Below, in pieces: positions 4,061-35,380 of a stretch of DNA of 35,561 bases; the first letter of the stretch is position 1; each line of letters starts with the position of its first letter. The DNA is from Candidatus Kaiserbacteria bacterium RIFOXYD1_FULL_47_14 (GTDB lineage Bacteria; Patescibacteriota; Minisyncoccia; Phycocordibacterales; Phycocordibacteraceae), in contig MFMU01000006.1 of NCBI GenBank assembly GCA_001781915.1, positions 1 to 35,561 of the forward strand. The letters run 5' to 3'. The translations under genes and the position numbers were made by a program. The notes under the pieces are model-generated. The model had not been told where the DNA came from and ran no database searches. It saw nothing but the letters and a program-made list of their open reading frames with translations.

Positions 4061-4088
4061 GACGAACCTCCTTAATTATTTTGTTTTA

Positions 4089-4234
4089 TGAGTAAGGACT
4101 ACCCTTGCTCACACCTTGACTTCTGTTTCTATATTACCGCAAAAGTGTTCTGTGTCAACTATCAAAGAGTTGTCGCTATAGCTACAAGTTGTTGATAGTG
4201 TTTGAGCAATTTGAGCAAGGGTAGTCCTTGCTCA
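4089..4234. repeat. Nested inverted-repeat structure: 23-nt terminal inverted repeats flanking a 40-nt palindrome
   Basis: 4089 TGAGTAAGGACTACCCTTGCTCA and 4212 TGAGCAAGGGTAGTCCTTGCTCA are inverted copies (one difference); 4159..4198 CTATCAAAGAGTTGTCGCTATAGCTACAAGTTGTTGATAG lies inside. Confidence 0.85.
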
Positions 4235-4275
4235 TGCCAATTAATCTTCAGTGGAAGCTCGGGTATACTACGAGG

Positions 4276-5994: not shown

Positions 5995-8463
5995 ATGGCT
6001 AATCGATTGTTAATCGTAGAATCGCCGACCAAGGCGCGCACTATAGGGCATTATCTCGGCAAGGACTACACCGTTCTCGCCTCGGTTGGGCATGTGCGCG
6101 ATCTGCCGAAATCAAATAAAGACGCCGTAGATATTGAAGGCGGTTTTATTCCGCGCTATGTTATTTCCCCTGATAAGCACGAAGTGATCGAGAAGATACA
6201 GCGTGCTGCCGCGAAGGCCGATGAGATCTATCTCGCGACCGACCCCGACCGCGAGGGCGAAGCGATTGCCTGGCATATTAAAGAGGTTGCGAATCTGAAG
6301 AAGCCGAAACGCGTCGTCTTCCATGAAATTACGAAAGATGCTATTGAAGAAGCGCTCGCCCACCCGCGCCTGATTGACGAGAATTTGCGCCGCGCGCAAG
6401 AAGCGCGGCGCGTCTTGGATCGTATTGTCGGCTACGACCTTTCTGGTCTTATCTGGAAAAAAGTGAGGTACGGTTTGTCAGCGGGTCGAGTACAATCGCC
6501 AGCACTGCGCATCCTCGCAGAACGAGAACGAGAGATTAAGGCCTTTCTTCCCGTCACCTATTTCGTACTCAACGCCCTTTTTCAGACAAGGTCGAACCTT
6601 AAATCCAATCCTCAAAGTTCGACCTTAAACACCACTTGCACCGAACAACCCACAACAAAAGAAGAAGCGGAGAGAATAGTACAAGCCGGCAGAAGCGCGA
6701 AGTGGCGTGTCGCTGATGTAGGAGAAAAAGCCGAAGATCGTAATCCACGACCGCCGTTCACGACTTCAACTTTGCAACAGACCGCATCAACACGCCTTGG
6801 CTTCGCTCCATCAAGAACAATGCGTGCCGCACAAAAGCTCTACGAAGCCGGACACATTACCTATATGCGTACCGATTCAGTGAATCTTGCGAAAGAAGCT
6901 GTGGCAAAGATGGCAAGTGTTGTTGAAAAACAATTCGGCAAAGAATATCTCCAGGTTCGTGTCTATAAGACAACAAGCAAGAATGCGCAAGAGGCGCACG
7001 AAGCTGTTCGTCCGACCGATCCAAGTCAAGCACGCGCGGGCTCGACACCAGATGAAACTGCCTTGTACGAACTTATTCGTATTCGTTCGCTCGCCTCGCA
7101 GATGGCTTCTGCAAAAATTTCTCGTACCAACATAAAGATTGAAGCTCGATGCCAATGTCAAGATGACATCTTGACATCGATACCGCCATTCGTTGCGAAT
7201 GGTTCGCGAGTCCTATTCCCCGGATGGCTCGCACTCGACACAAGAGCGCGCGGCGAAGATGTCGAATTACCGAAACTCGCTACAGGCGATGCGCTTACTC
7301 TTCTCTCTCTCGGCAGTGAAGAAAAACAAACTGAACCGCCGAATCGCTACACAGAAGCAGGATTGATTAAAGAACTTGAAAAACGCGATATCGGACGCCC
7401 ATCAACCTACGCGTCTATTATGAAGACGATTCAGGATCGCGGATATGTAGAGAAACTCGCGCGCGCTCTGAAGCCGACTGCAACGGGCATGGTCGTCTCC
7501 GGATGGCTCGAAAAACATTTCCCTGAATATGTAAGTGACACCTTTACTGCTGAAATGGAAAACGAACTTGACGAAATTGCGCGCGGCGAACGCGGGTATA
7601 CCGAAACATTGACCGCATTCTACGGTCCATTCGAGAAGGCAGTACGAGCGAAAGACAAACTTCCGAAAGCGACTTCTCTCGGCGATGTCCCAAAAGAATT
7701 TTCATGTCCGCTTTGTGGAAACTCGATGGAATTCAAACTTGGTCGTGGTGGCATTTTTATGAGTTGCAAAAACTACCCAGATTGTCTTGGTGCGAGAACT
7801 GAAGAAGGTACTGAATTAAAAAGTGATGAACCAATCGGGAATGATCCCAAAACCGGCGCGCCGATTTATATAAAGACCGGAAGATTTGGTCCGTATGTTG
7901 AGATGGCACTGGAAGAACCCGCACCAAGGTCCGACCTTGAGAATTCGGATTTAAGGTCGGACCTTGGTGCGGGGAAAAGCAAAAAGAAAAGCGCAGCGAA
8001 GCGCGGCAAGGGCCGTCCGAAGACTGCAGCGAGACGCGCAAGTATCCCTACTGGTACCAATATCGCGGACATAACGCTCGCCGATGCGTTGAAATATCTC
8101 TCGCTTCCACGCGAGCTTGGAATACATCCTTCAACTGGAAAGAATGTATTCGCTTCGACTGGTCGTTTCGGACCCTATGTTGGAAGCGACGGCGAATTCC
8201 GTTCACTGAAAGCGAAGACCGGCGACCCATATACTATTACGCTTGACGAAGCACTTGCGCTTCTCGCTGAACCGAAAAAACAATCAAAAGGTGTTGAGCT
8301 GGTAAAAGAAATCGGCAAGCATCCGCGCACCGGTAAAATGCTTTCACTGTATAAATCAAAACAAGGGCTCTTCTTAAAGAAAGGTCTGCGCCGTATTTAT
8401 CTGCCCGATTCCATAAAAGCAGATTCCCTTTCTCCCGTCGACGCCGCTGAATATTTGAAATAA
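5995..8463 (+). CDS. topA: DNA topoisomerase I (type IA)
   Basis: LLIVESPTKARTIGHYLG, TDPDREGEAIAWHI, LRRAQEARRVLDRIVGYDLS, ITYMRTDSVNL, Cys4 finger CPLCGNSMEFKLGRGGIFMSCKNYPDC, TopoI C-terminal repeats. Confidence 0.97.
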   Translation: MANRLLIVESPTKARTIGHYLGKDYTVLASVGHVRDLPKSNKDAVDIEGGFIPRYVISPDKHEVIEKIQRAAAKADEIYLATDPDREGEAIAWHIKEVANLKKPKRVVFHEITKDAIEEALAHPRLIDENLRRAQEARRVLDRIVGYDLSGLIWKKVRYGLSAGRVQSPALRILAEREREIKAFLPVTYFVLNALFQTRSNLKSNPQSSTLNTTCTEQPTTKEEAERIVQAGRSAKWRVADVGEKAEDRNPRPPFTTSTLQQTASTRLGFAPSRTMRAAQKLYEAGHITYMRTDSVNLAKEAVAKMASVVEKQFGKEYLQVRVYKTTSKNAQEAHEAVRPTDPSQARAGSTPDETALYELIRIRSLASQMASAKISRTNIKIEARCQCQDDILTSIPPFVANGSRVLFPGWLALDTRARGEDVELPKLATGDALTLLSLGSEEKQTEPPNRYTEAGLIKELEKRDIGRPSTYASIMKTIQDRGYVEKLARALKPTATGMVVSGWLEKHFPEYVSDTFTAEMENELDEIARGERGYTETLTAFYGPFEKAVRAKDKLPKATSLGDVPKEFSCPLCGNSMEFKLGRGGIFMSCKNYPDCLGARTEEGTELKSDEPIGNDPKTGAPIYIKTGRFGPYVEMALEEPAPRSDLENSDLRSDLGAGKSKKKSAAKRGKGRPKTAARRASIPTGTNIADITLADALKYLSLPRELGIHPSTGKNVFASTGRFGPYVGSDGEFRSLKAKTGDPYTITLDEALALLAEPKKQSKGVELVKEIGKHPRTGKMLSLYKSKQGLFLKKGLRRIYLPDSIKADSLSPVDAAEYLK
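6585..6629. repeat. 45-nt double-hairpin palindromic element inside topA
   Basis: AAGGTCGAACCTT (6588-6600) and AAAGTTCGACCTT (6614-6626) are inverted near-copies, centre spacing 26 nt; encodes approximately QTRSNLKSNPQSSTLN. Confidence 0.85.
7155..7177. repeat. 23-nt single-hairpin palindrome inside topA
   Basis: ATGTCAAGATG-A-CATCTTGACAT, perfect 11-1-11. Confidence 0.85.
7918..7973. repeat. Double-hairpin palindromic element inside topA
   Basis: CCCGCACCAAGGTCCGACCTT ... AAGGTCGGACCTTGGTGCGGG; each AAGGTCNGACCTT is itself palindromic; encodes APRSDLENSDLRSDLGAG. Confidence 0.88.
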
Positions 8464-11410: not shown

Positions 11411-11448
11411 GCCCTACTTCGTCCTTCAGCTGACGAACTACGAAGGGC
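11411..11448. repeat. 38-nt palindrome upstream of tRNA-Leu
   Basis: GCCCTACTTCGTCCTTCAGCTGACGAACTACGAAGGGC. Confidence 0.85.
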
Positions 11449-11451
11449 GTA

Positions 11452-11533
11452 GCCGGGATGGCGGAATTGGCAGACGCGATGGATTCAAGACCCATTGTCG
11501 AAAGACATGAGAGTTCGATTCTCTCTCCCGGCA
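11452..11533 (+). tRNA. tRNA-Leu(CAA)
   Basis: GCCGGGA...TCCCGGC-A acceptor, GGCGGAATTGGCAGACGC D-arm, loop TTCAAGA (anticodon CAA), variable arm TGTCGAAAGACA, T-arm GAGAGTTCGATTCTCTC; CCA not encoded. Confidence 0.92.
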
Positions 11534-11568
11534 CTACTTCGTCCGTCAGCTGACGGACTACGAAGTGC
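11531..11568. repeat. 38-nt palindrome directly at the 3' end of tRNA-Leu
   Basis: GCACTACTTCGTCCGTCAGCTGACGGACTACGAAGTGC; starts within the last three tRNA bases. Confidence 0.87.
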
Positions 11569-11577
11569 ATGCACCCT

Positions 11578-12444
11578 ATGACTAAAATTTTATGCATCGC
11601 GGGGCCGACTGCCTCGGGTAAGTCCGCACGCGCGGTTGGAGAAGCACTCACCAGAAATGGCGAGATAATCTCGGTTGATAGCCGGCAGGTATATCGCGGA
11701 CTCGATATCGGCACAGAAAAAATAACCTGCGAAGAAATGCATGGAGTTCCCCACCATCTTATCGATATTCGCGAGGTGAACGAGATTTATTCTGCCGGCG
11801 ACTTCGTCTCTGACGCGACGCACCTCATTGAAGAAATTTCAACGCGCGGAAAACTGCCGATTCTCGTCGGCGGAACGCATTTTTATTTTGATGCACTTCT
11901 GAAAGGTCTTCCGACAGGAGCTGACGCGAATCCGGCACTTCGCGCAGAATTAGAGAAACTCTCGACCGAAGAATTGTATGCGCGTGTCGTGCGAGCAGAT
12001 GCGCGTCGCGCAAGCGAGATTGACCCTCACAATCGCCGCCGACTTATTCGTGCTCTTGAAATTATCAAGTCGCTCGGCTCTGTCCCGCCTCGCAACCTCG
12101 TGGACGCCAGGCGTCCACAGTTGCTGTGGACGCCTGGCGTCCACACAGAATGGATTGTGATTGACCCGCCGAAAGAAGAATTGCGAACGAGAATTGATGC
12201 GCGCTTAAGAAAAGCTCTCGAACGCGGACTTATAGAAGAAGTCCACAAAGTACACGAAAAAGTTGGCGATGCACGACTCAACGAACTCGGCCTTGAATAT
12301 CGCGTCATCGGCGAATTTCTGAACTTGGAAGCGAAACACCCAAGTGGGTGTTTCGCTTCCAAGTTGCTCCCTGCGCTCTCAGCGAAACTCTGGCAATATG
12401 CACGGCACCAAAAATCGTGGCTGCGGAAATTAGGGGAAAGATGA
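11578..12444 (+). CDS. miaA: tRNA dimethylallyltransferase
   Basis: ILCIAGPTASGKSARAV, ISVDSRQVYRGLDIGTEK, VPHHLIDI, LPILVGGTHFYFDALLKGL, DPHNRRRLIRALEI; start taken at MTKILCIAG (11578). Confidence 0.95.
   Translation: MTKILCIAGPTASGKSARAVGEALTRNGEIISVDSRQVYRGLDIGTEKITCEEMHGVPHHLIDIREVNEIYSAGDFVSDATHLIEEISTRGKLPILVGGTHFYFDALLKGLPTGADANPALRAELEKLSTEELYARVVRADARRASEIDPHNRRRLIRALEIIKSLGSVPPRNLVDARRPQLLWTPGVHTEWIVIDPPKEELRTRIDARLRKALERGLIEEVHKVHEKVGDARLNELGLEYRVIGEFLNLEAKHPSGCFASKLLPALSAKLWQYARHQKSWLRKLGER
12100..12144. repeat. 45-nt double-hairpin element (19-7-19) in frame in miaA
   Basis: GTGGACGCCAGGCGTCCAC-AGTTGCT-GTGGACGCCTGGCGTCCAC; each arm is a 9-1-9 hairpin; encodes VDARRPQLLWTPGVH. 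Confidence 0.95.
12322..12365. repeat. 44-nt long palindrome in miaA 3' region
   Basis: AACTTGGAAGCGAAACACCCA-AG-TGGGTGTTTCGCTTCCAAGTT, perfect 21-2-21. Confidence 0.92.
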
Positions 12445-16526: not shown

Positions 16527-16571
16527 GTGGAAGTCAGACATCCACAGCAACTGTGGATGTCTGACTTCCAC
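16527..16571. repeat. 45-nt double-hairpin element overlapping the clpB 3' end
   Basis: GTGGAAGTCAGACATCCAC-AGCAACT-GTGGATGTCTGACTTCCAC; clpB stop TGA (16534-16536) lies within it. Confidence 0.95.
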
Positions 16572-20008: not shown

Positions 20009-21136
20009 CTACCCTTGACCGTTCCTGTCAATAAACTGTATTGCTCGCACCAGTGCCTTAGTAAAGCGTACTAATCCACTGGAATGAGTACGCGGACCCC
20101 ACGAAATACGCAGAGTTGAACGAGCGCGTTCATAATCGCCAGTAAGAGCAAAAACCGCTCGCGAGCCCTCTTCGGAGTCCGTCTCACAAGCGCTCCTAGT
20201 CGAGACAGCAAAACCTGCTTCGTCGAGAAGCGCCACCAGATAATCAGTGTCACGGCCTGGAAATGAGAGATTGATGATGTTTGGCGCTTGAACACGGCCT
20301 CCATTTATATATACCTTGGGAATTGTTTCTAAAATAATCTTCACTATTTTCGTTCTATCTTTTTCAGCAGACATACAGAATTTCTCGCGACCAAGCGCGG
20401 CGGCGCGAAGCGCCGCCGCGAATGCTTTCGCAAGTTCAGGTGATTCGCTTCCCGGCCGCAATCCTCTTTCTTGTCCGCCGCCGCGATACAACGGTTCAAG
20501 GGGAATAGTTCGATGTGCAATAAGAGCGCCCATACCACGCCCAACACTCACTTTGGAACTATCAAACGAGAGCATATCCGCGCCGAAATGTGCGCGAGTT
20601 ATTTTTTCTGTAAGCGGAGCTTGACTGGCATCGATATGCAACAAAGCTCTGTTGTTGAAGTTCGACTTCAACAGTTGCTGTTGAAGTCGAACTTCAACTA
20701 ATATCTGTGCCACCTCTCTCGTATTCCAAATAATCCCCGTCTCTCCGCAAACGGCATCCATAGTAACTAGTTTTGTCTCTGGTCGCAGCATTTTCTTTAG
20801 TTTTTCACAATCAACACGCCCTTCTTTAATCGGAAGTTCTTCAACTTTAATTCCTCGTTCGCTTAGTAATTTTATGTTCTCAATGATTGACGCATGCGCG
20901 CTTGGCAAATAGAAAATGTGATCTCCTTTTTTGGTTACACCAATAATCGCGAGCGCATTCGCTTCAGTCGCACCGCTGGTGAAGATAATATCGTCCGATT
21001 GCACTTCAACGAGACGCGCAATTTCTCTTCTCGCTTCTTCAAGCTGTTCTCGGGATTTTCGACCTTCCGTGTGCGGAGACGAAGGATTCCCACTCATACC
21101 CGCCGCAAAATCAAAATTGACTCGTCTCGTGAACAT
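20009..21136 (-). CDS. Cysteine desulfurase-like (NifS/IscS family) PLP aminotransferase
   Basis: NPSSPHTEGR, FTSGATEANALAI, HIDASQAPL, SFDSSKVSVGRGMGALI, RGGGQERGLRPGSES, STRSACETDSEEGSRAV. Confidence 0.9.
   Translation of the reverse strand: MFTRRVNFDFAAGMSGNPSSPHTEGRKSREQLEEARREIARLVEVQSDDIIFTSGATEANALAIIGVTKKGDHIFYLPSAHASIIENIKLLSERGIKVEELPIKEGRVDCEKLKKMLRPETKLVTMDAVCGETGIIWNTREVAQILVEVRLQQQLLKSNFNNRALLHIDASQAPLTEKITRAHFGADMLSFDSSKVSVGRGMGALIAHRTIPLEPLYRGGGQERGLRPGSESPELAKAFAAALRAAALGREKFCMSAEKDRTKIVKIILETIPKVYINGGRVQAPNIINLSFPGRDTDYLVALLDEAGFAVSTRSACETDSEEGSRAVFALTGDYERARSTLRISWGPRTHSSGLVRFTKALVRAIQFIDRNGQG
20654..20698. repeat. 45-nt double-hairpin element in frame in the cysteine desulfurase gene
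   Basis: GTTGAAGTTCGACTTCAAC-AGTTGCT-GTTGAAGTCGAACTTCAAC; encodes VEVRLQQQLLKSNFN. Confidence 0.95.
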
Positions 21137-24589: not shown

Positions 24590-26536
24590 ATGTTTGTCAT
24601 TCGCCGAGATCTTGACAACCCGATTCTCTCGCCTCGCCGCGAACATCCGTGGGAGGCACTTGCTGTATTTAATCCGTCTGTTATTCGCGAGAAGAACGGT
24701 TGGAAGATGTATTATCGAGCACTCTCAAATCCATCGGCACTGGTCTCTTCGTACGCAGGACAATCAACCATTGGCGAAGCATTTTCCGAAGACGGCACTC
24801 ACTTTAATGTACGACGACAAATACTTGTTCCGGAACAATCATGGGAATCATTCGGTTGCGAAGATCCGAGAGTTACTATCTTTGAAGGCGTTTCGTACCT
24901 CTCCTACACAGCACTCGGCGGATATCCCTTTTCAAAAGATACGATAAAAGTCGGTATCGCCGTCGCACGAGATGGAAAAAATTTTACTGAACGGCATCTC
25001 GTCACGCCTTTTAATGCAAAAGCATTCGCTCTATTCCCCGAACGCATCGATGGCAAAGTTGCAGCACTTTTGACTATTCATACTGACGAACCACCTGCCG
25101 AAATATGTTTGGCATATGCCGACCATATCAATGACTTCTGGTCACCAGATTTCTGGAACGAGTGGTACACAAGTTGGCAATCACACAAACTCTCATTCAA
25201 ACGCAATAACAACGACCATATTGAAGTTGGGAGCGTTCCGATACTCACCAAGGATGGTTGGCTCATCTTCTATTCCTATATAGAAAATTATTTCGGTGGC
25301 AGCGAACGGGTCTTTTCGGTTGAAGCGGCACTTCTCGATCGCGACGATCCGTCAAAAATCATCAATCGCACTGAATCAATTTTCGTCCCTGAAGAAATCT
25401 ATGAACTGTATGGTCTCGTACCTAATATAGTTTTCCCCACCAGCGCAACCATTCTTCGTGGAAGCCAGGCGTCCACAGCAACTGTGGACGCCTGGCTTCC
25501 ACAGCAAGACATGCTTGAAATATGGTATGGAGCAGCGGACACCGTTTGCGCAAAAGCAAGTGTGAAATTAAACGATTTGTTGCGGGACTTGGATCCAGAA
25601 AAACCAGCGCGCACCTTCACGCGTTCCGAAAAAAATCCAATTCTTGCTCCTCATGGCGATGGATTCGAGAGCCACGAGGTGCTGAATGCTGCCGCGATTG
25701 ATATCGACGGCTCGGTCTATATTCTCTATCGCGCGATGGATGCCGCGAATACTTCTACCATCGGACTCGCGATTTCTCATGACGGCATCACTATTAATGA
25801 GCGCCTGCCAGAACCAATTTATGCGCCGCGCGCCGATTTCGAAATGAAGAAAGGCAGCGCCACTGGCAATTCCGGCTGCGAGGATCCGCGCATCGTGTGC
25901 ATTGGCGACACACTTCATATGACCTACACTGCCTATGATGGAGTGCATGTGCCGGCAGGAGCTATCTCCTCTATCAGCGTTGAGGACTTTCTTGCACGAC
26001 GATGGGAAAAGTGGAGCGTACCTTTCATCCTCACTCCCGAGGGCGTTGATGATAAAGACCTCGCTCTCTTGCCTGAAAAAATCGGCGAAAATTATCTACT
26101 CTATCATCGTATCAATAACCAGATTTGTGCTGATCTCCTTCCTGATCTCTCCTCGGGTAAATGCGCGAGCCGTTGTATCGAAGTTATCGCGCCGCGACTT
26201 GGTATGTGGGATGGACTGAAGGTCGGCAGTACGGCACCGCCGATTAAAGTCGGCAATAATTGGCTGATGATTTACCATGGCGTCTCGCGCCACGGAACCT
26301 ATCGCCTTGGCGCCGTACTCTTGGATGCTTCAGGTACTTCTGTCCTTGCTCGTACTGCTGACCCGATCTTCGAACCAATAGAAAAATACGAGCACGAGGG
26401 AGCAGTCGCGAATGTTGTCTTTTCCTGCGGTACAGTTGTCCGCGGCGACACTATCTTTCTCTACTACGGCGCCGCCGATAAAGTGCTTGGCGTCGCGACC
26501 GCTTCGCTAGCGCACATTGTTGATGCACTGACATGA
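24590..26536 (+). CDS. Tandem two-module GH130-family protein
   Basis: Module 1 NPILSPRREHPWEALAVFNPSVI...FGCEDPRVTIFEG; module 2 NPILAPHGDGFESHEVLNAAAI...SGCEDPRIVCIGD...LGVATASL. Confidence 0.88.
   Translation: MFVIRRDLDNPILSPRREHPWEALAVFNPSVIREKNGWKMYYRALSNPSALVSSYAGQSTIGEAFSEDGTHFNVRRQILVPEQSWESFGCEDPRVTIFEGVSYLSYTALGGYPFSKDTIKVGIAVARDGKNFTERHLVTPFNAKAFALFPERIDGKVAALLTIHTDEPPAEICLAYADHINDFWSPDFWNEWYTSWQSHKLSFKRNNNDHIEVGSVPILTKDGWLIFYSYIENYFGGSERVFSVEAALLDRDDPSKIINRTESIFVPEEIYELYGLVPNIVFPTSATILRGSQASTATVDAWLPQQDMLEIWYGAADTVCAKASVKLNDLLRDLDPEKPARTFTRSEKNPILAPHGDGFESHEVLNAAAIDIDGSVYILYRAMDAANTSTIGLAISHDGITINERLPEPIYAPRADFEMKKGSATGNSGCEDPRIVCIGDTLHMTYTAYDGVHVPAGAISSISVEDFLARRWEKWSVPFILTPEGVDDKDLALLPEKIGENYLLYHRINNQICADLLPDLSSGKCASRCIEVIAPRLGMWDGLKVGSTAPPIKVGNNWLMIYHGVSRHGTYRLGAVLLDASGTSVLARTADPIFEPIEKYEHEGAVANVVFSCGTVVRGDTIFLYYGAADKVLGVATASLAHIVDALT
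25458..25502. repeat. 45-nt double-hairpin element in frame in the GH130 tandem gene
   Basis: GTGGAAGCCAGGCGTCCAC-AGCAACT-GTGGACGCCTGGCTTCCAC; encodes GSQASTATVDAWLPQ. Confidence 0.95.
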
Positions 26537-27306
26537 AGCTTATTATTTTCGATTTAGACGGGACACTCGCCGAGAGTAAACAACCGCTCACCAGTGAGAT
26601 GGCAGCGATCGTCGCGAAACTTCTTACTCATACCAAAGTCGCGGTCGCTTCAGGTGGCGCTCTTCCACAATTTATAAAACAAGTAGTTGACCGATTGCCG
26701 AGTGATACTAATCTCGCAAATCTCTATTTCCTGCCCACCTCCGGTGCCGCACTCTATGAATTCCACCCCTCGACTTCGCTCGGGGCAGGAAATAGCAATT
26801 GGAATAAGATTTATGAAGAACGCCTTTCAGAAAAAGAAGCTCACACTATTGAAACGGCAATGCGCGAAGCAGCCGCCGAGACCGGACTTATCGATTTTTC
26901 AGAACCTGCGTACGGAGAACGCATTGAATATCGCGGCGGCCAAGTAACTTTATCAGCACTCGGGCAAGAAGCACCTCTCGCAGAGAAAAAAATGTGGGAT
27001 CCTGAACATATCAAACGACATCTGCTCCAAGCAAATATTTCAGCACGACTGCCGGAATTCTCGGTCGGTATTGGCGGCTCCACGAGTATTGATATTTCTA
27101 AACGCAATATCGATAAGGCCTACGGCATTCGACAGCTCTGTAATCGTCTAGACATCGATGAATCAGATGTACTCTATATCGGCGACGAACTTGAAGCGGG
27201 AGGTAATGATGAAGCCGTCTACAAAACTAATGCGGAAACGAAAAGTGTCACTGGTCCCACAGAGACCGCACAATTTATCGAAAATCTCCTAAGTAAAGAT
27301 GTCTGA
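26533..27306 (+). CDS. HAD-superfamily (type IIB) phosphatase/phosphomannomutase-like protein
   Basis: MKLIIFDLDGTLAESKQPLTSEM, FSVGIGGSTSIDISKRNIDKAYGI, YIGDELEAGGNDEAVYKT; layout matches eukaryotic-type PMM. Confidence 0.8.
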   Translation: MKLIIFDLDGTLAESKQPLTSEMAAIVAKLLTHTKVAVASGGALPQFIKQVVDRLPSDTNLANLYFLPTSGAALYEFHPSTSLGAGNSNWNKIYEERLSEKEAHTIETAMREAAAETGLIDFSEPAYGERIEYRGGQVTLSALGQEAPLAEKKMWDPEHIKRHLLQANISARLPEFSVGIGGSTSIDISKRNIDKAYGIRQLCNRLDIDESDVLYIGDELEAGGNDEAVYKTNAETKSVTGPTETAQFIENLLSKDV

Positions 27307-27311
27307 CCTCT

Positions 27312-29018
27312 TTATTGGCGCATAAGACGCACGAGGCGGATGATTTCAAAAGAGTGGCGACCGCCAAGCGAATGAAAGACGGGAGAAAGTTTATCGCCGC
27401 TTGTCGCAGCGAGCGCTTCGTGAATCTCGCCGACACTATCAAATGGCACGAGATGCGCGAAGTCGGTGCGGGTTAACTTCCCTATTTCGGCGAGTTCTTC
27501 CAGATGCTTTACGATAGTTGACGCAGTGAGCCCGCGCGCTTTTGCGACCTCTTTTAATGTTTTTGAATCTCGTGCGGCCTGGAGTGTTTCTGCCAATCTT
27601 CCCGGCAATCCTGTTATGTGGGGACTTCGTAAGTCCCCATTTGATGTTGACTTACGAAGTCCTAACTTCGATTCGGATTTCGTGCTTGTATCAAACCACG
27701 CCCCGCCCATCGCTTTCACAAATTTTTTCTGCATACTCGTTACTTCTGTTTCTGACATCTCTGCGAATGCATCCCGCGCCGCGTCTGACGCGGCGCGAAA
27801 ATCCCGATCCTTCTCGAGAATCTCCGGATGTACTTCGAGTGCGCGCTGATTCAATCCAGTAAGATACACTCCAGAAAGCCGCCGCACGCGCGAAAGCGCG
27901 ACATATCCCTGCCCATATTCAAACGCTTTCGATAGATCCATAATCGCGGCATCCATACTCATTCCTTGGCTTTTATGCACCGTCATCGCATAGGCGAGCC
28001 GAAGCGGATACTGTGAGACACTTGCTTTTACCTTACCCTGTTCTTCAAGCTGCCACTCCATCGGCTCAGTCGTTATCCTCAAACCATCTTTTGTTTTAAT
28101 AATCGGCGAGCCATCAGCATCCCATCCAATGACGACACCAAGCGTCCCGTTCACGAATCTCCCTTGCGGAGAATTTTTGGTAAACATCACTGTCGCGCCA
28201 TCTTTTAATTCCAAAATTTCTGGTGAGAGGCATCCGCGTTTTAATCCTTCGACAAATGAGTCCTTCCCTTTCGAATTCATAGTAAATTTCTTTGACTTGC
28301 CGGAAAGCTTTTCGAGTTCACTCGCATTAATACGGTCGACATCGGCGTTATGCGAAAATAATTTTGGTACGGAGGTTTCCAAGGTCCGACCTTGGAAATC
28401 TATTCGACGCTTCATTAAAAGTTCGTAATGCATCTCTTCAACATTCCCTGAGCGAATCGCCGAGAGCACGCCGAGAAACTCATTGTCATCTTGCCGGTAT
28501 TGCTCCGTGAGATAACAGGTCAACAAATTCAGCTCGCGCCACACTTTCGATTCATAGGCGAATTTCACTTCGCGATCTCTTGAAATAGGCGGCAGTTGGA
28601 AGAAGTCGCCGACGAGAATAACCGAGAGCCCGCCAAAGGGCGCATCCATACGCCGTACCTCGCGACATATCTTGTCAGCCATTTCGAAGGTTGCCGCTGA
28701 GAGCATCGAGATTTCCTCTATAATGAGCACTTTCGCTTTCATTATGCGTTTCGCGATATGCTCTTTACTCGCGATGCGATCCACATCAGCTGGCGAAAGC
28801 GAGTCGCTAATGCCAATACCGCTCCAAGAGTGGAGCGTCATACCAGCGACATGCGTCGCCGCGATGCCCGTCGCCGCGGTTACCGAGGGTTCAATACCCG
28901 AAGCGCGCAGCCACGCAACAAATTCATTTATCGTGTGCGTTTTCCCGCTCCCCGGCTCGCCGGTGAGGAATACATTCGCGCCTGTCTTCAGTATAGTGAG
29001 CGCCTCGCATTGTGTCAT
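27312..29018 (-). CDS. PIF1/RecD2-like superfamily 1 DNA helicase with C-terminal HTH
   Basis: NVFLTGEPGSGKTHTINEF, VTAATGIAATHVAGMTLHSWSGIG, VLIIEEISMLSA, LVGDFFQLPPI, LTEQYRQDDNEF, AYAMTVHKSQGMSMDAAIMDL, VALSRVRRL. Confidence 0.93.
   Translation of the reverse strand: MTQCEALTILKTGANVFLTGEPGSGKTHTINEFVAWLRASGIEPSVTAATGIAATHVAGMTLHSWSGIGISDSLSPADVDRIASKEHIAKRIMKAKVLIIEEISMLSAATFEMADKICREVRRMDAPFGGLSVILVGDFFQLPPISRDREVKFAYESKVWRELNLLTCYLTEQYRQDDNEFLGVLSAIRSGNVEEMHYELLMKRRIDFQGRTLETSVPKLFSHNADVDRINASELEKLSGKSKKFTMNSKGKDSFVEGLKRGCLSPEILELKDGATVMFTKNSPQGRFVNGTLGVVIGWDADGSPIIKTKDGLRITTEPMEWQLEEQGKVKASVSQYPLRLAYAMTVHKSQGMSMDAAIMDLSKAFEYGQGYVALSRVRRLSGVYLTGLNQRALEVHPEILEKDRDFRAASDAARDAFAEMSETEVTSMQKKFVKAMGGAWFDTSTKSESKLGLRKSTSNGDLRSPHITGLPGRLAETLQAARDSKTLKEVAKARGLTASTIVKHLEELAEIGKLTRTDFAHLVPFDSVGEIHEALAATSGDKLSPVFHSLGGRHSFEIIRLVRLMRQ
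27620..27664. repeat. 45-nt double-hairpin element in the helicase gene
   Basis: GGGGACTTCGTAAGTCCCC-ATTTGAT-GTTGACTTACGAAGTCCTA; encodes GLRKSTSNGDLRSPH. Confidence 0.9.
27775..27797. repeat. 23-nt single-hairpin palindrome in the helicase gene
   Basis: CGCGCCGCGTC-T-GACGCGGCGCG, perfect 11-1-11. Confidence 0.85.
28376..28398. repeat. 23-nt single-hairpin palindrome in the helicase gene
   Basis: TTTCCAAGGTC-C-GACCTTGGAAA, perfect 11-1-11. Confidence 0.87.
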
Positions 29019-29037: not shown

Positions 29038-29084
29038 ACTTGTAGGTGAGACACCCAAGTTGCTTGGGTGTCTCACCTACAAGT
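29038..29084. repeat. 47-nt intergenic palindrome with the AGTTGCT spacer
   Basis: ACTTGTAGGTGAGACACCCA-AGTTGCT-TGGGTGTCTCACCTACAAGT, perfect 20-7-20. Confidence 0.93.
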
Positions 29085-35340: not shown

Positions 35341-35380
35341 CTATCCAAGAGTTGTCGCTATAGCGACAAGTTGTGGATAG
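35341..35380. repeat. 40-nt palindrome, second copy of the 4159..4198 element
   Basis: CTATCCAAGAGTTGTCGCTATAGCGACAAGTTGTGGATAG, near-identical to CTATCAAAGAGTTGTCGCTATAGCTACAAGTTGTTGATAG. Confidence 0.93.

What the first reader, a model, noticed from the sequence alone, without database searches (positions are those of the whole stretch)
12100..12144. Archetype 45-nt nested palindrome in miaA
GTGGACGCCAGGCGTCCAC-AGTTGCT-GTGGACGCCTGGCGTCCAC: perfect at both levels (arm hairpin and arm-to-arm). It encodes exactly 15 codons (VDARRPQLLWTPGVH) between PPRNL and TEWIVID, where I would expect no such segment in MiaA.
Basis: partly seen in the sequence, partly recalled or inferred. Interest (0 to 1): 0.75.

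Follow-up and report, generated by a model that had tools for sequence, protein, structure and literature searches.

The report
In-frame mobile palindrome inside miaA
A tiny 45-letter mobile hairpin, most likely copied around by a dedicated hairpin-cutting enzyme encoded elsewhere in this ultra-small bacterium's genome, has inserted in frame into a tRNA-modification gene, and relatives carry different hairpins in the same floppy protein loop.

Summary
Confirmed and largely explained. The 45-nt nested palindrome at 12100-12144 is real: a 21-bp stem with a 3-nt loop, each arm itself a 9-bp hairpin. It encodes MiaA residues 175-189. It is one of a dispersed family in this Kaiserbacteria (Patescibacteria) genome: two inverted palindromes separated by AGTTGCT/AGCAACT. 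Other copies sit in clpC, a cysteine desulfurase and a glycosidase in the window, and a close variant in enolase elsewhere.

The arm is identical to the inverted palindrome pair flanking a Y1/HUH (RAYT-like) transposase gene at C3:44138, one of 11 such genes in 628 kb. Across the genus, 37 of 47 such genes have a matched flanking palindrome pair, against 2 of 300 mismatched pairings. The element is therefore best read as a REPIN (inverted REP doublet) mobilised by a RAYT.

The 15 aa are absent from most MiaA proteins, but the same loop carries different palindromes in about 15 relatives, on a tree needing at least 4 changes. AlphaFold gives that loop as the only segment with pLDDT<50. Frame conservation favours translation over RNA excision.

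In-frame intragenic REP dimers are already known (Rickettsia, O. terrae). New here are the RAYT-REPIN repertoire in a streamlined Patescibacterium and its repeated colonisation of the same loops. Mobilisation itself is inferred.

The parts
12100..12144 (+). REPIN: two inverted 19-nt REP-like palindromes with 7-nt spacer AGTTGCT; encodes MiaA residues 175-189
12100..12118 (+). left REP arm GTGGACGCCAGGCGTCCAC, identical to the palindrome downstream of the RAYT at C3:44138
12119..12125 (+). spacer AGTTGCT (AGCAACT in the other orientation), shared by the four copies in the window
12126..12144 (+). right REP arm GTGGACGCCTGGCGTCCAC, identical to the palindrome upstream of the RAYT at C3:44138
11578..12444 (+). 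miaA, host gene (TIGR00174 189 bits, IPPT Pfam)
12322..12365 (+). second palindromic insert in miaA (21-bp stem), at a second loop that also carries palindromes in relatives
16527..16571 (-). same-family REPIN at the 3' end of clpC; it supplies the stop codon. Arms match the palindrome upstream of the RAYT at C9:2761 at 18 of 19 bases
20654..20698 (+). same-family REPIN in frame in the cysteine desulfurase gene (20009-21136, - strand), in a length-variable loop
25458..25502 (-). same-family REPIN in frame in a glycosidase-like gene (24590-26536, + strand)
7918..7973 (+). REPIN of another family in frame in topA; a sister copy with a similar spacer is at L019:795-836

Best explanation
The element is a REPIN: a non-autonomous mobile DNA unit made of two inverted REP-like palindromes. 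It is most likely mobilised as single-stranded DNA by a Y1/HUH transposase of the RAYT (TnpA-REP) type; the candidate is the gene at C3:44138, flanked by the same palindrome on both sides. Shown: structure, dispersal, arm identity to a RAYT-flanking pair, absence from most MiaA orthologues, recurrence of different palindromes in the same loop, and arm-to-arm compensatory variation between copies. Inferred: that this RAYT cuts and moves it. Insertions in frame at tolerant loops are kept because they are translated as short disordered peptides that do little harm; out-of-frame or structurally harmful insertions are lost by purifying selection. The peptide probably has no selected function.
For: Arm identical to both palindromes flanking the RAYT at C3:44138. 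The RAYT matches PF01797 above cutoff and carries an NHFH (HUH) motif. 37 of 47 genus RAYTs have a matched inverted flanking pair vs 2 of 300 mismatched pairings. G002 has one Y1 gene, whose palindrome matches its own MiaA insert. Seven related REPINs: 100% of stem cells paired, 10 of 21 pairs changed on both sides, 0 of 500 shuffles. MiaA palindromes concentrate at residues 170-189 (17 hits) and 240-259 (6) among 82 proteins. 16 inserted MiaAs are scattered on the tree, 15 changes, at least 4 forced. The loop has pLDDT<50. In-frame copies of this or other REPIN families also in enolase, RNase HII, topA and cysteine desulfurase.
Against: No movement has been seen, and no close pair of genomes with filled and empty site was available (nearest MiaA about 76% identical), so exact ends and any target duplication are unknown. 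In G003, G017 and G019 the MiaA element matches a RAYT flank best in another species, and G005 has no convincing match. Most RAYT palindromes in the genus lack a clear GTAG tag. Copy number is low, about ten or fewer seen. At miaA the loop is only about 9 residues longer than usual rather than 15, so it was not a clean insertion or was trimmed later.
Confidence: 0.82

Rival explanations
1. The palindrome arose in place by template switching at a replication fork, with no transposase involved.
For: Perfect arm-to-arm matching with imperfect inner hairpins (e.g. 25458-25502) suggests that one arm can be copied from the other.
Against: The same arm and spacer occur at unlinked genes and the arm matches a RAYT-flanking pair, which in-place formation does not predict. 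Template switching may still keep the arms matched after insertion.
Confidence: 0.08
2. The segment is removed from the RNA or bypassed by the ribosome, so MiaA is made without it.
For: A 21-bp RNA hairpin in mRNA could in principle be excised or skipped; hairpin-linked bypass elements exist in other organisms (own knowledge).
Against: Frame is always kept: no stops inside miaA in the 36 genomes where it was found, although the L134 and G019 elements are open in only 1 of 6 frames; multiplying the open fractions of ten MiaA elements gives about 0.004 that all would be open in the used frame if frame did not matter. The loop tolerates variable length in relatives without palindromes.
Confidence: 0.03
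3. The elements are functional: domesticated regulatory hairpins (mRNA stability, attenuation) or selected peptide loops.
For: They recur in core genes (miaA, enolase, RNase HII, topA) and REPs elsewhere have been proposed to affect mRNA stability (abstract of PMC3733652).
Against: Sequence, orientation and presence differ from species to species; presence in MiaA is scattered on the tree; most orthologues lack it.
Confidence: 0.07

Closest known systems
REPINs and RAYTs (Bertels and Rainey 2011, PMC3116915; TnpA-REP, PMC6006769, PMC8266576)
   Same: Inverted doublet of palindromes forming a hairpin; sequence-matched Y1/HUH transposase genes flanked by the same palindrome; generally one palindrome type per transposase; compensatory changes
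   Different: Compact (45 nt, 7-nt spacer, against a 71-bp distance between the conserved 16-mers in SBW25), few copies, mostly inside genes in frame, mostly without a clear GTAG tag; many transposase types in one 628-kb genome
Intragenic REP dimers of O. terrae and other species (PMC3733652)
   Same: REP dimers inserted in frame in protein genes, encoding 20-30 aa, argued to lie in flexible linkers or loops
   Different: Those families are GTAG- or CGTC-tagged and mostly intergenic; recurrence of unrelated palindromes at one loop across a genus was not described in the passages read
Rickettsia palindromic elements (Ogata 2000; reviewed in PMC10969869)
   Same: Palindromic selfish DNA in frame inside unrelated protein genes of a reduced genome
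   Different: RPEs are about 150 bp, and the CGTC-type REPs that include RPE-4 and RPE-6 apparently lack a dedicated transposase (PMC3733652); here a matched candidate transposase is present

Membership tests
REPIN | Two REP palindromes in inverted orientation able to form one long hairpin | tested here: met
   21-bp stem; seven relatives 100% paired with 10 covarying pairs
REPIN | Repeated at dispersed places in the genome | tested here: met
   Copies in C3, C6 and C7, but only about ten, not hundreds
REPIN | Associated RAYT gene flanked by the same palindrome | tested here: met
   RAYT at C3:44138 with identical inverted pair; 37 of 47 in the genus vs 2 of 300
REPIN | GTAG/GTGG tetranucleotide at the foot of the palindrome | tested here: inconclusive
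   GTGG is at the foot in this family but is part of the stem on both sides; many other RAYT palindromes in the genus start otherwise
REPIN | Extragenic location | tested here: not met
   Doublets examined lie in miaA, clpC, a cysteine desulfurase, a glycosidase, topA, enolase, rnhB and other ORFs; 29038-29084 is intergenic. Location is typical, not strictly defining: intragenic REPs are known
RAYT (TnpA-REP) | Y1 transposase domain with HUH motif and catalytic tyrosine | tested here: met
   PF01797 34 bits vs cutoff 23; NHFH and downstream tyrosines visible; which tyrosine is catalytic was not tested
RAYT (TnpA-REP) | NCBIfam REP_Tyr_transpos equivalog above cutoff | tested here: not met
   NF047646 hit at 26 bits against a cutoff of 80: a divergent relative, so 'RAYT-like'
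RAYT (TnpA-REP) | Binds and cleaves the cognate single-stranded REP | not testable with these tools
   needs biochemistry
Rickettsia palindromic element | About 100-150 bp palindrome with a conserved encoded peptide, no dedicated transposase | tested here: not met
   45 nt, read in different frames with different peptides in the four window copies, candidate transposase present

The most novel reading that the evidence does not exclude
In Kaiserbacteria a large repertoire of divergent RAYT-like transposases drives short REPINs that live mainly inside genes as in-frame mobile peptide cassettes, repeatedly colonising the same tolerant loops of essential proteins and so acting as a main source of loop-length variation in a streamlined genome.
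Probability: 0.4. Interest if true: 0.65.

Novelty: new variant of a known kind. Interest (0 to 1): 0.52.

Why it matters
In-frame palindromic selfish DNA was mainly known from Rickettsia, without a known mover. Here the inserts can be paired with candidate transposases in a minimal genome, so their movement, target choice and effect on proteins become testable. It also warns that odd loop insertions in Patescibacteria proteins may be mobile DNA rather than adaptations.

Tried and rejected
RNA excision or bypass was rejected from frame conservation. A depletion of stops beyond expectation in unused frames was not claimed: the window element is open in all six frames, but so are 43% of arm-shuffled versions. 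A shared insertion target could not be established: 12100 and 25458 share a similar flank (AGAATGG), with too few cases. Palindromes near MiaA codon 139 recur in many species and look like ordinary coding sequence. The RAYT was not folded, since loci from the genome search are not on that tool's list. No paper found in the held library links RAYT or REPIN to Patescibacteria, which is weak evidence of novelty because the library is partial.

Full report
Observation. The gene is a sound miaA, and the element encodes residues 175-189.

A family, not a singleton. The same architecture and the same 7-nt spacer occur at 16527-16571, 20654-20698 and 25458-25502 in the window. A pattern scan of the 628-kb genome finds the arm at a few further places. 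Apart from the RAYT-flanking copies and weak single hits (C7:7054, C6:29777), these are doublets, mostly with 26-nt start-to-start spacing. Seven aligned copies (four from the window, one from contig C3, two from relatives) have different arms but are 100% paired in the long stem, with 10 of 21 pairs changed on both sides and no shuffle of 500 reaching this. One end base of the G003 copy was entered as C where the locus reads T, so its outermost pair should be left out of that count. The inner hairpins are less well kept (91%), so the long arm-to-arm pairing is the better preserved level.

The candidate mover. The genome holds 11 Y1_Tnp genes, the most among 59 genus genomes surveyed. The gene at C3:44138 is flanked by TGTGGACGCCTGGCGTCCACA upstream and TGTGGACGCCAGGCGTCCACA downstream: the two arms of the miaA element. 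The gene at C9:2761 has TGTGGATGTCCGACTTCCACA upstream, matching the clpC element at 18 of 19 core bases; its 3' part is cut by an assembly gap. The other nine each have their own palindrome pair by eye. Over the genus, 37 of 47 parsed RAYTs have a matched inverted pair scoring at least 14, against 2 of 300 pairings of an upstream flank with another gene's downstream flank. This is the REPtron arrangement of the literature (PMC6006769). In G002, which has a single Y1 gene, the flanking palindrome is the best match to its MiaA insert; G003, G017 and G019 elements match RAYT-bearing loci of other species of the genus best; G005 has no convincing match. The protein itself is divergent: PF01797 above cutoff, REP_Tyr_transpos far below cutoff, so it is called RAYT-like.

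The host site. In MiaA of the genus (named relatives are mostly Candidatus Kaiserbacteria) the stretch between the conserved VP and the following Ile-Asp/Asn is usually 14-16 residues, and 24 here. Of 82 MiaA proteins, 17 palindromes of score 12 or more map to residues 170-189 and 6 to residues 240-259, the second site being that of the window's 12322-12365 insert. The palindromes differ between species. On a MiaA tree without these columns the 16 rows treated as inserted are scattered: 15 changes, at least 4 forced by well-supported branches (the tree is weakly resolved). AlphaFold places 174-186 as the only segment with pLDDT below 50 in an otherwise confident MiaA fold. The cysteine desulfurase shows the same pattern: a loop of variable length filled differently in each relative. 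In-frame doublets also sit in enolase, RNase HII and other ORFs of this genome.

Mechanism. Most likely the RAYT recognises the REP hairpins on single-stranded DNA, cuts, and the REPIN is copied or pasted elsewhere, as proposed for REPINs (PMC3116915; cleavage shown for other TnpA-REPs in PMC8266576). Movement here is inferred, not seen. Insertions that keep the frame and fall in loops persist. Translation through the element is favoured because miaA is open in all 36 genomes where it was found, although some elements have stops in five of six frames.

What is known. Intragenic, in-frame REP dimers encoding 20-30 aa were described for O. terrae, R. conorii and others, with loops suggested as tolerant sites (PMC3733652), and RPEs are the classic case (PMC10969869). 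The kind is therefore known. The variant differs in compactness, low copy number, mainly intragenic location among the copies examined, the many RAYT types in a minimal genome, and repeated occupation of the same loop.

Limits. No near-identical empty site was available, the genome was not read whole, and the literature library is partial.

Noticed in passing
G000 contigs C2, C3, C4, C9, C10, C13, C19, C20 (L005-L012, L022, L027, L028): Eleven RAYT-like genes in one 628-kb genome, each with its own flanking palindrome; the highest count among 59 genus genomes.
   Followed up: yes
930-971 and 27622-27662: A REPIN-like unit GGACTTCGTAAGTCC...CTTACGAAGTCC occurs within both dusB and a helicase gene; no cognate RAYT recognised in this assembly.
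   Followed up: partly
4088-4111 and 4212-4235: Inverted pair of palindromes matching those flanking the RAYT at C2:26819, with a 40-nt palindrome between them (4159-4198) that recurs at 35341-35380.
   Followed up: partly
29038-29084: A 22-bp-stem palindrome with the same AGTTGCT core but different arms, intergenic just upstream of the helicase gene.
   Followed up: no
11411-11448 and 11531-11568: Two copies of a 38-nt palindrome on either side of what looks like a tRNA gene (not checked with a tRNA finder).
   Followed up: no
26533-27306, protein segment PSTSLGAGN: A short coding insert resembling PSTDSGS-type segments seen in the MiaA loop of G013 and others; possibly another repeat family.
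   Followed up: no
5995-8463 (topA), protein segment RSNLKSNPQSST: An 8-residue insert in TopA shared only with G003 among the relatives aligned.
   Followed up: no
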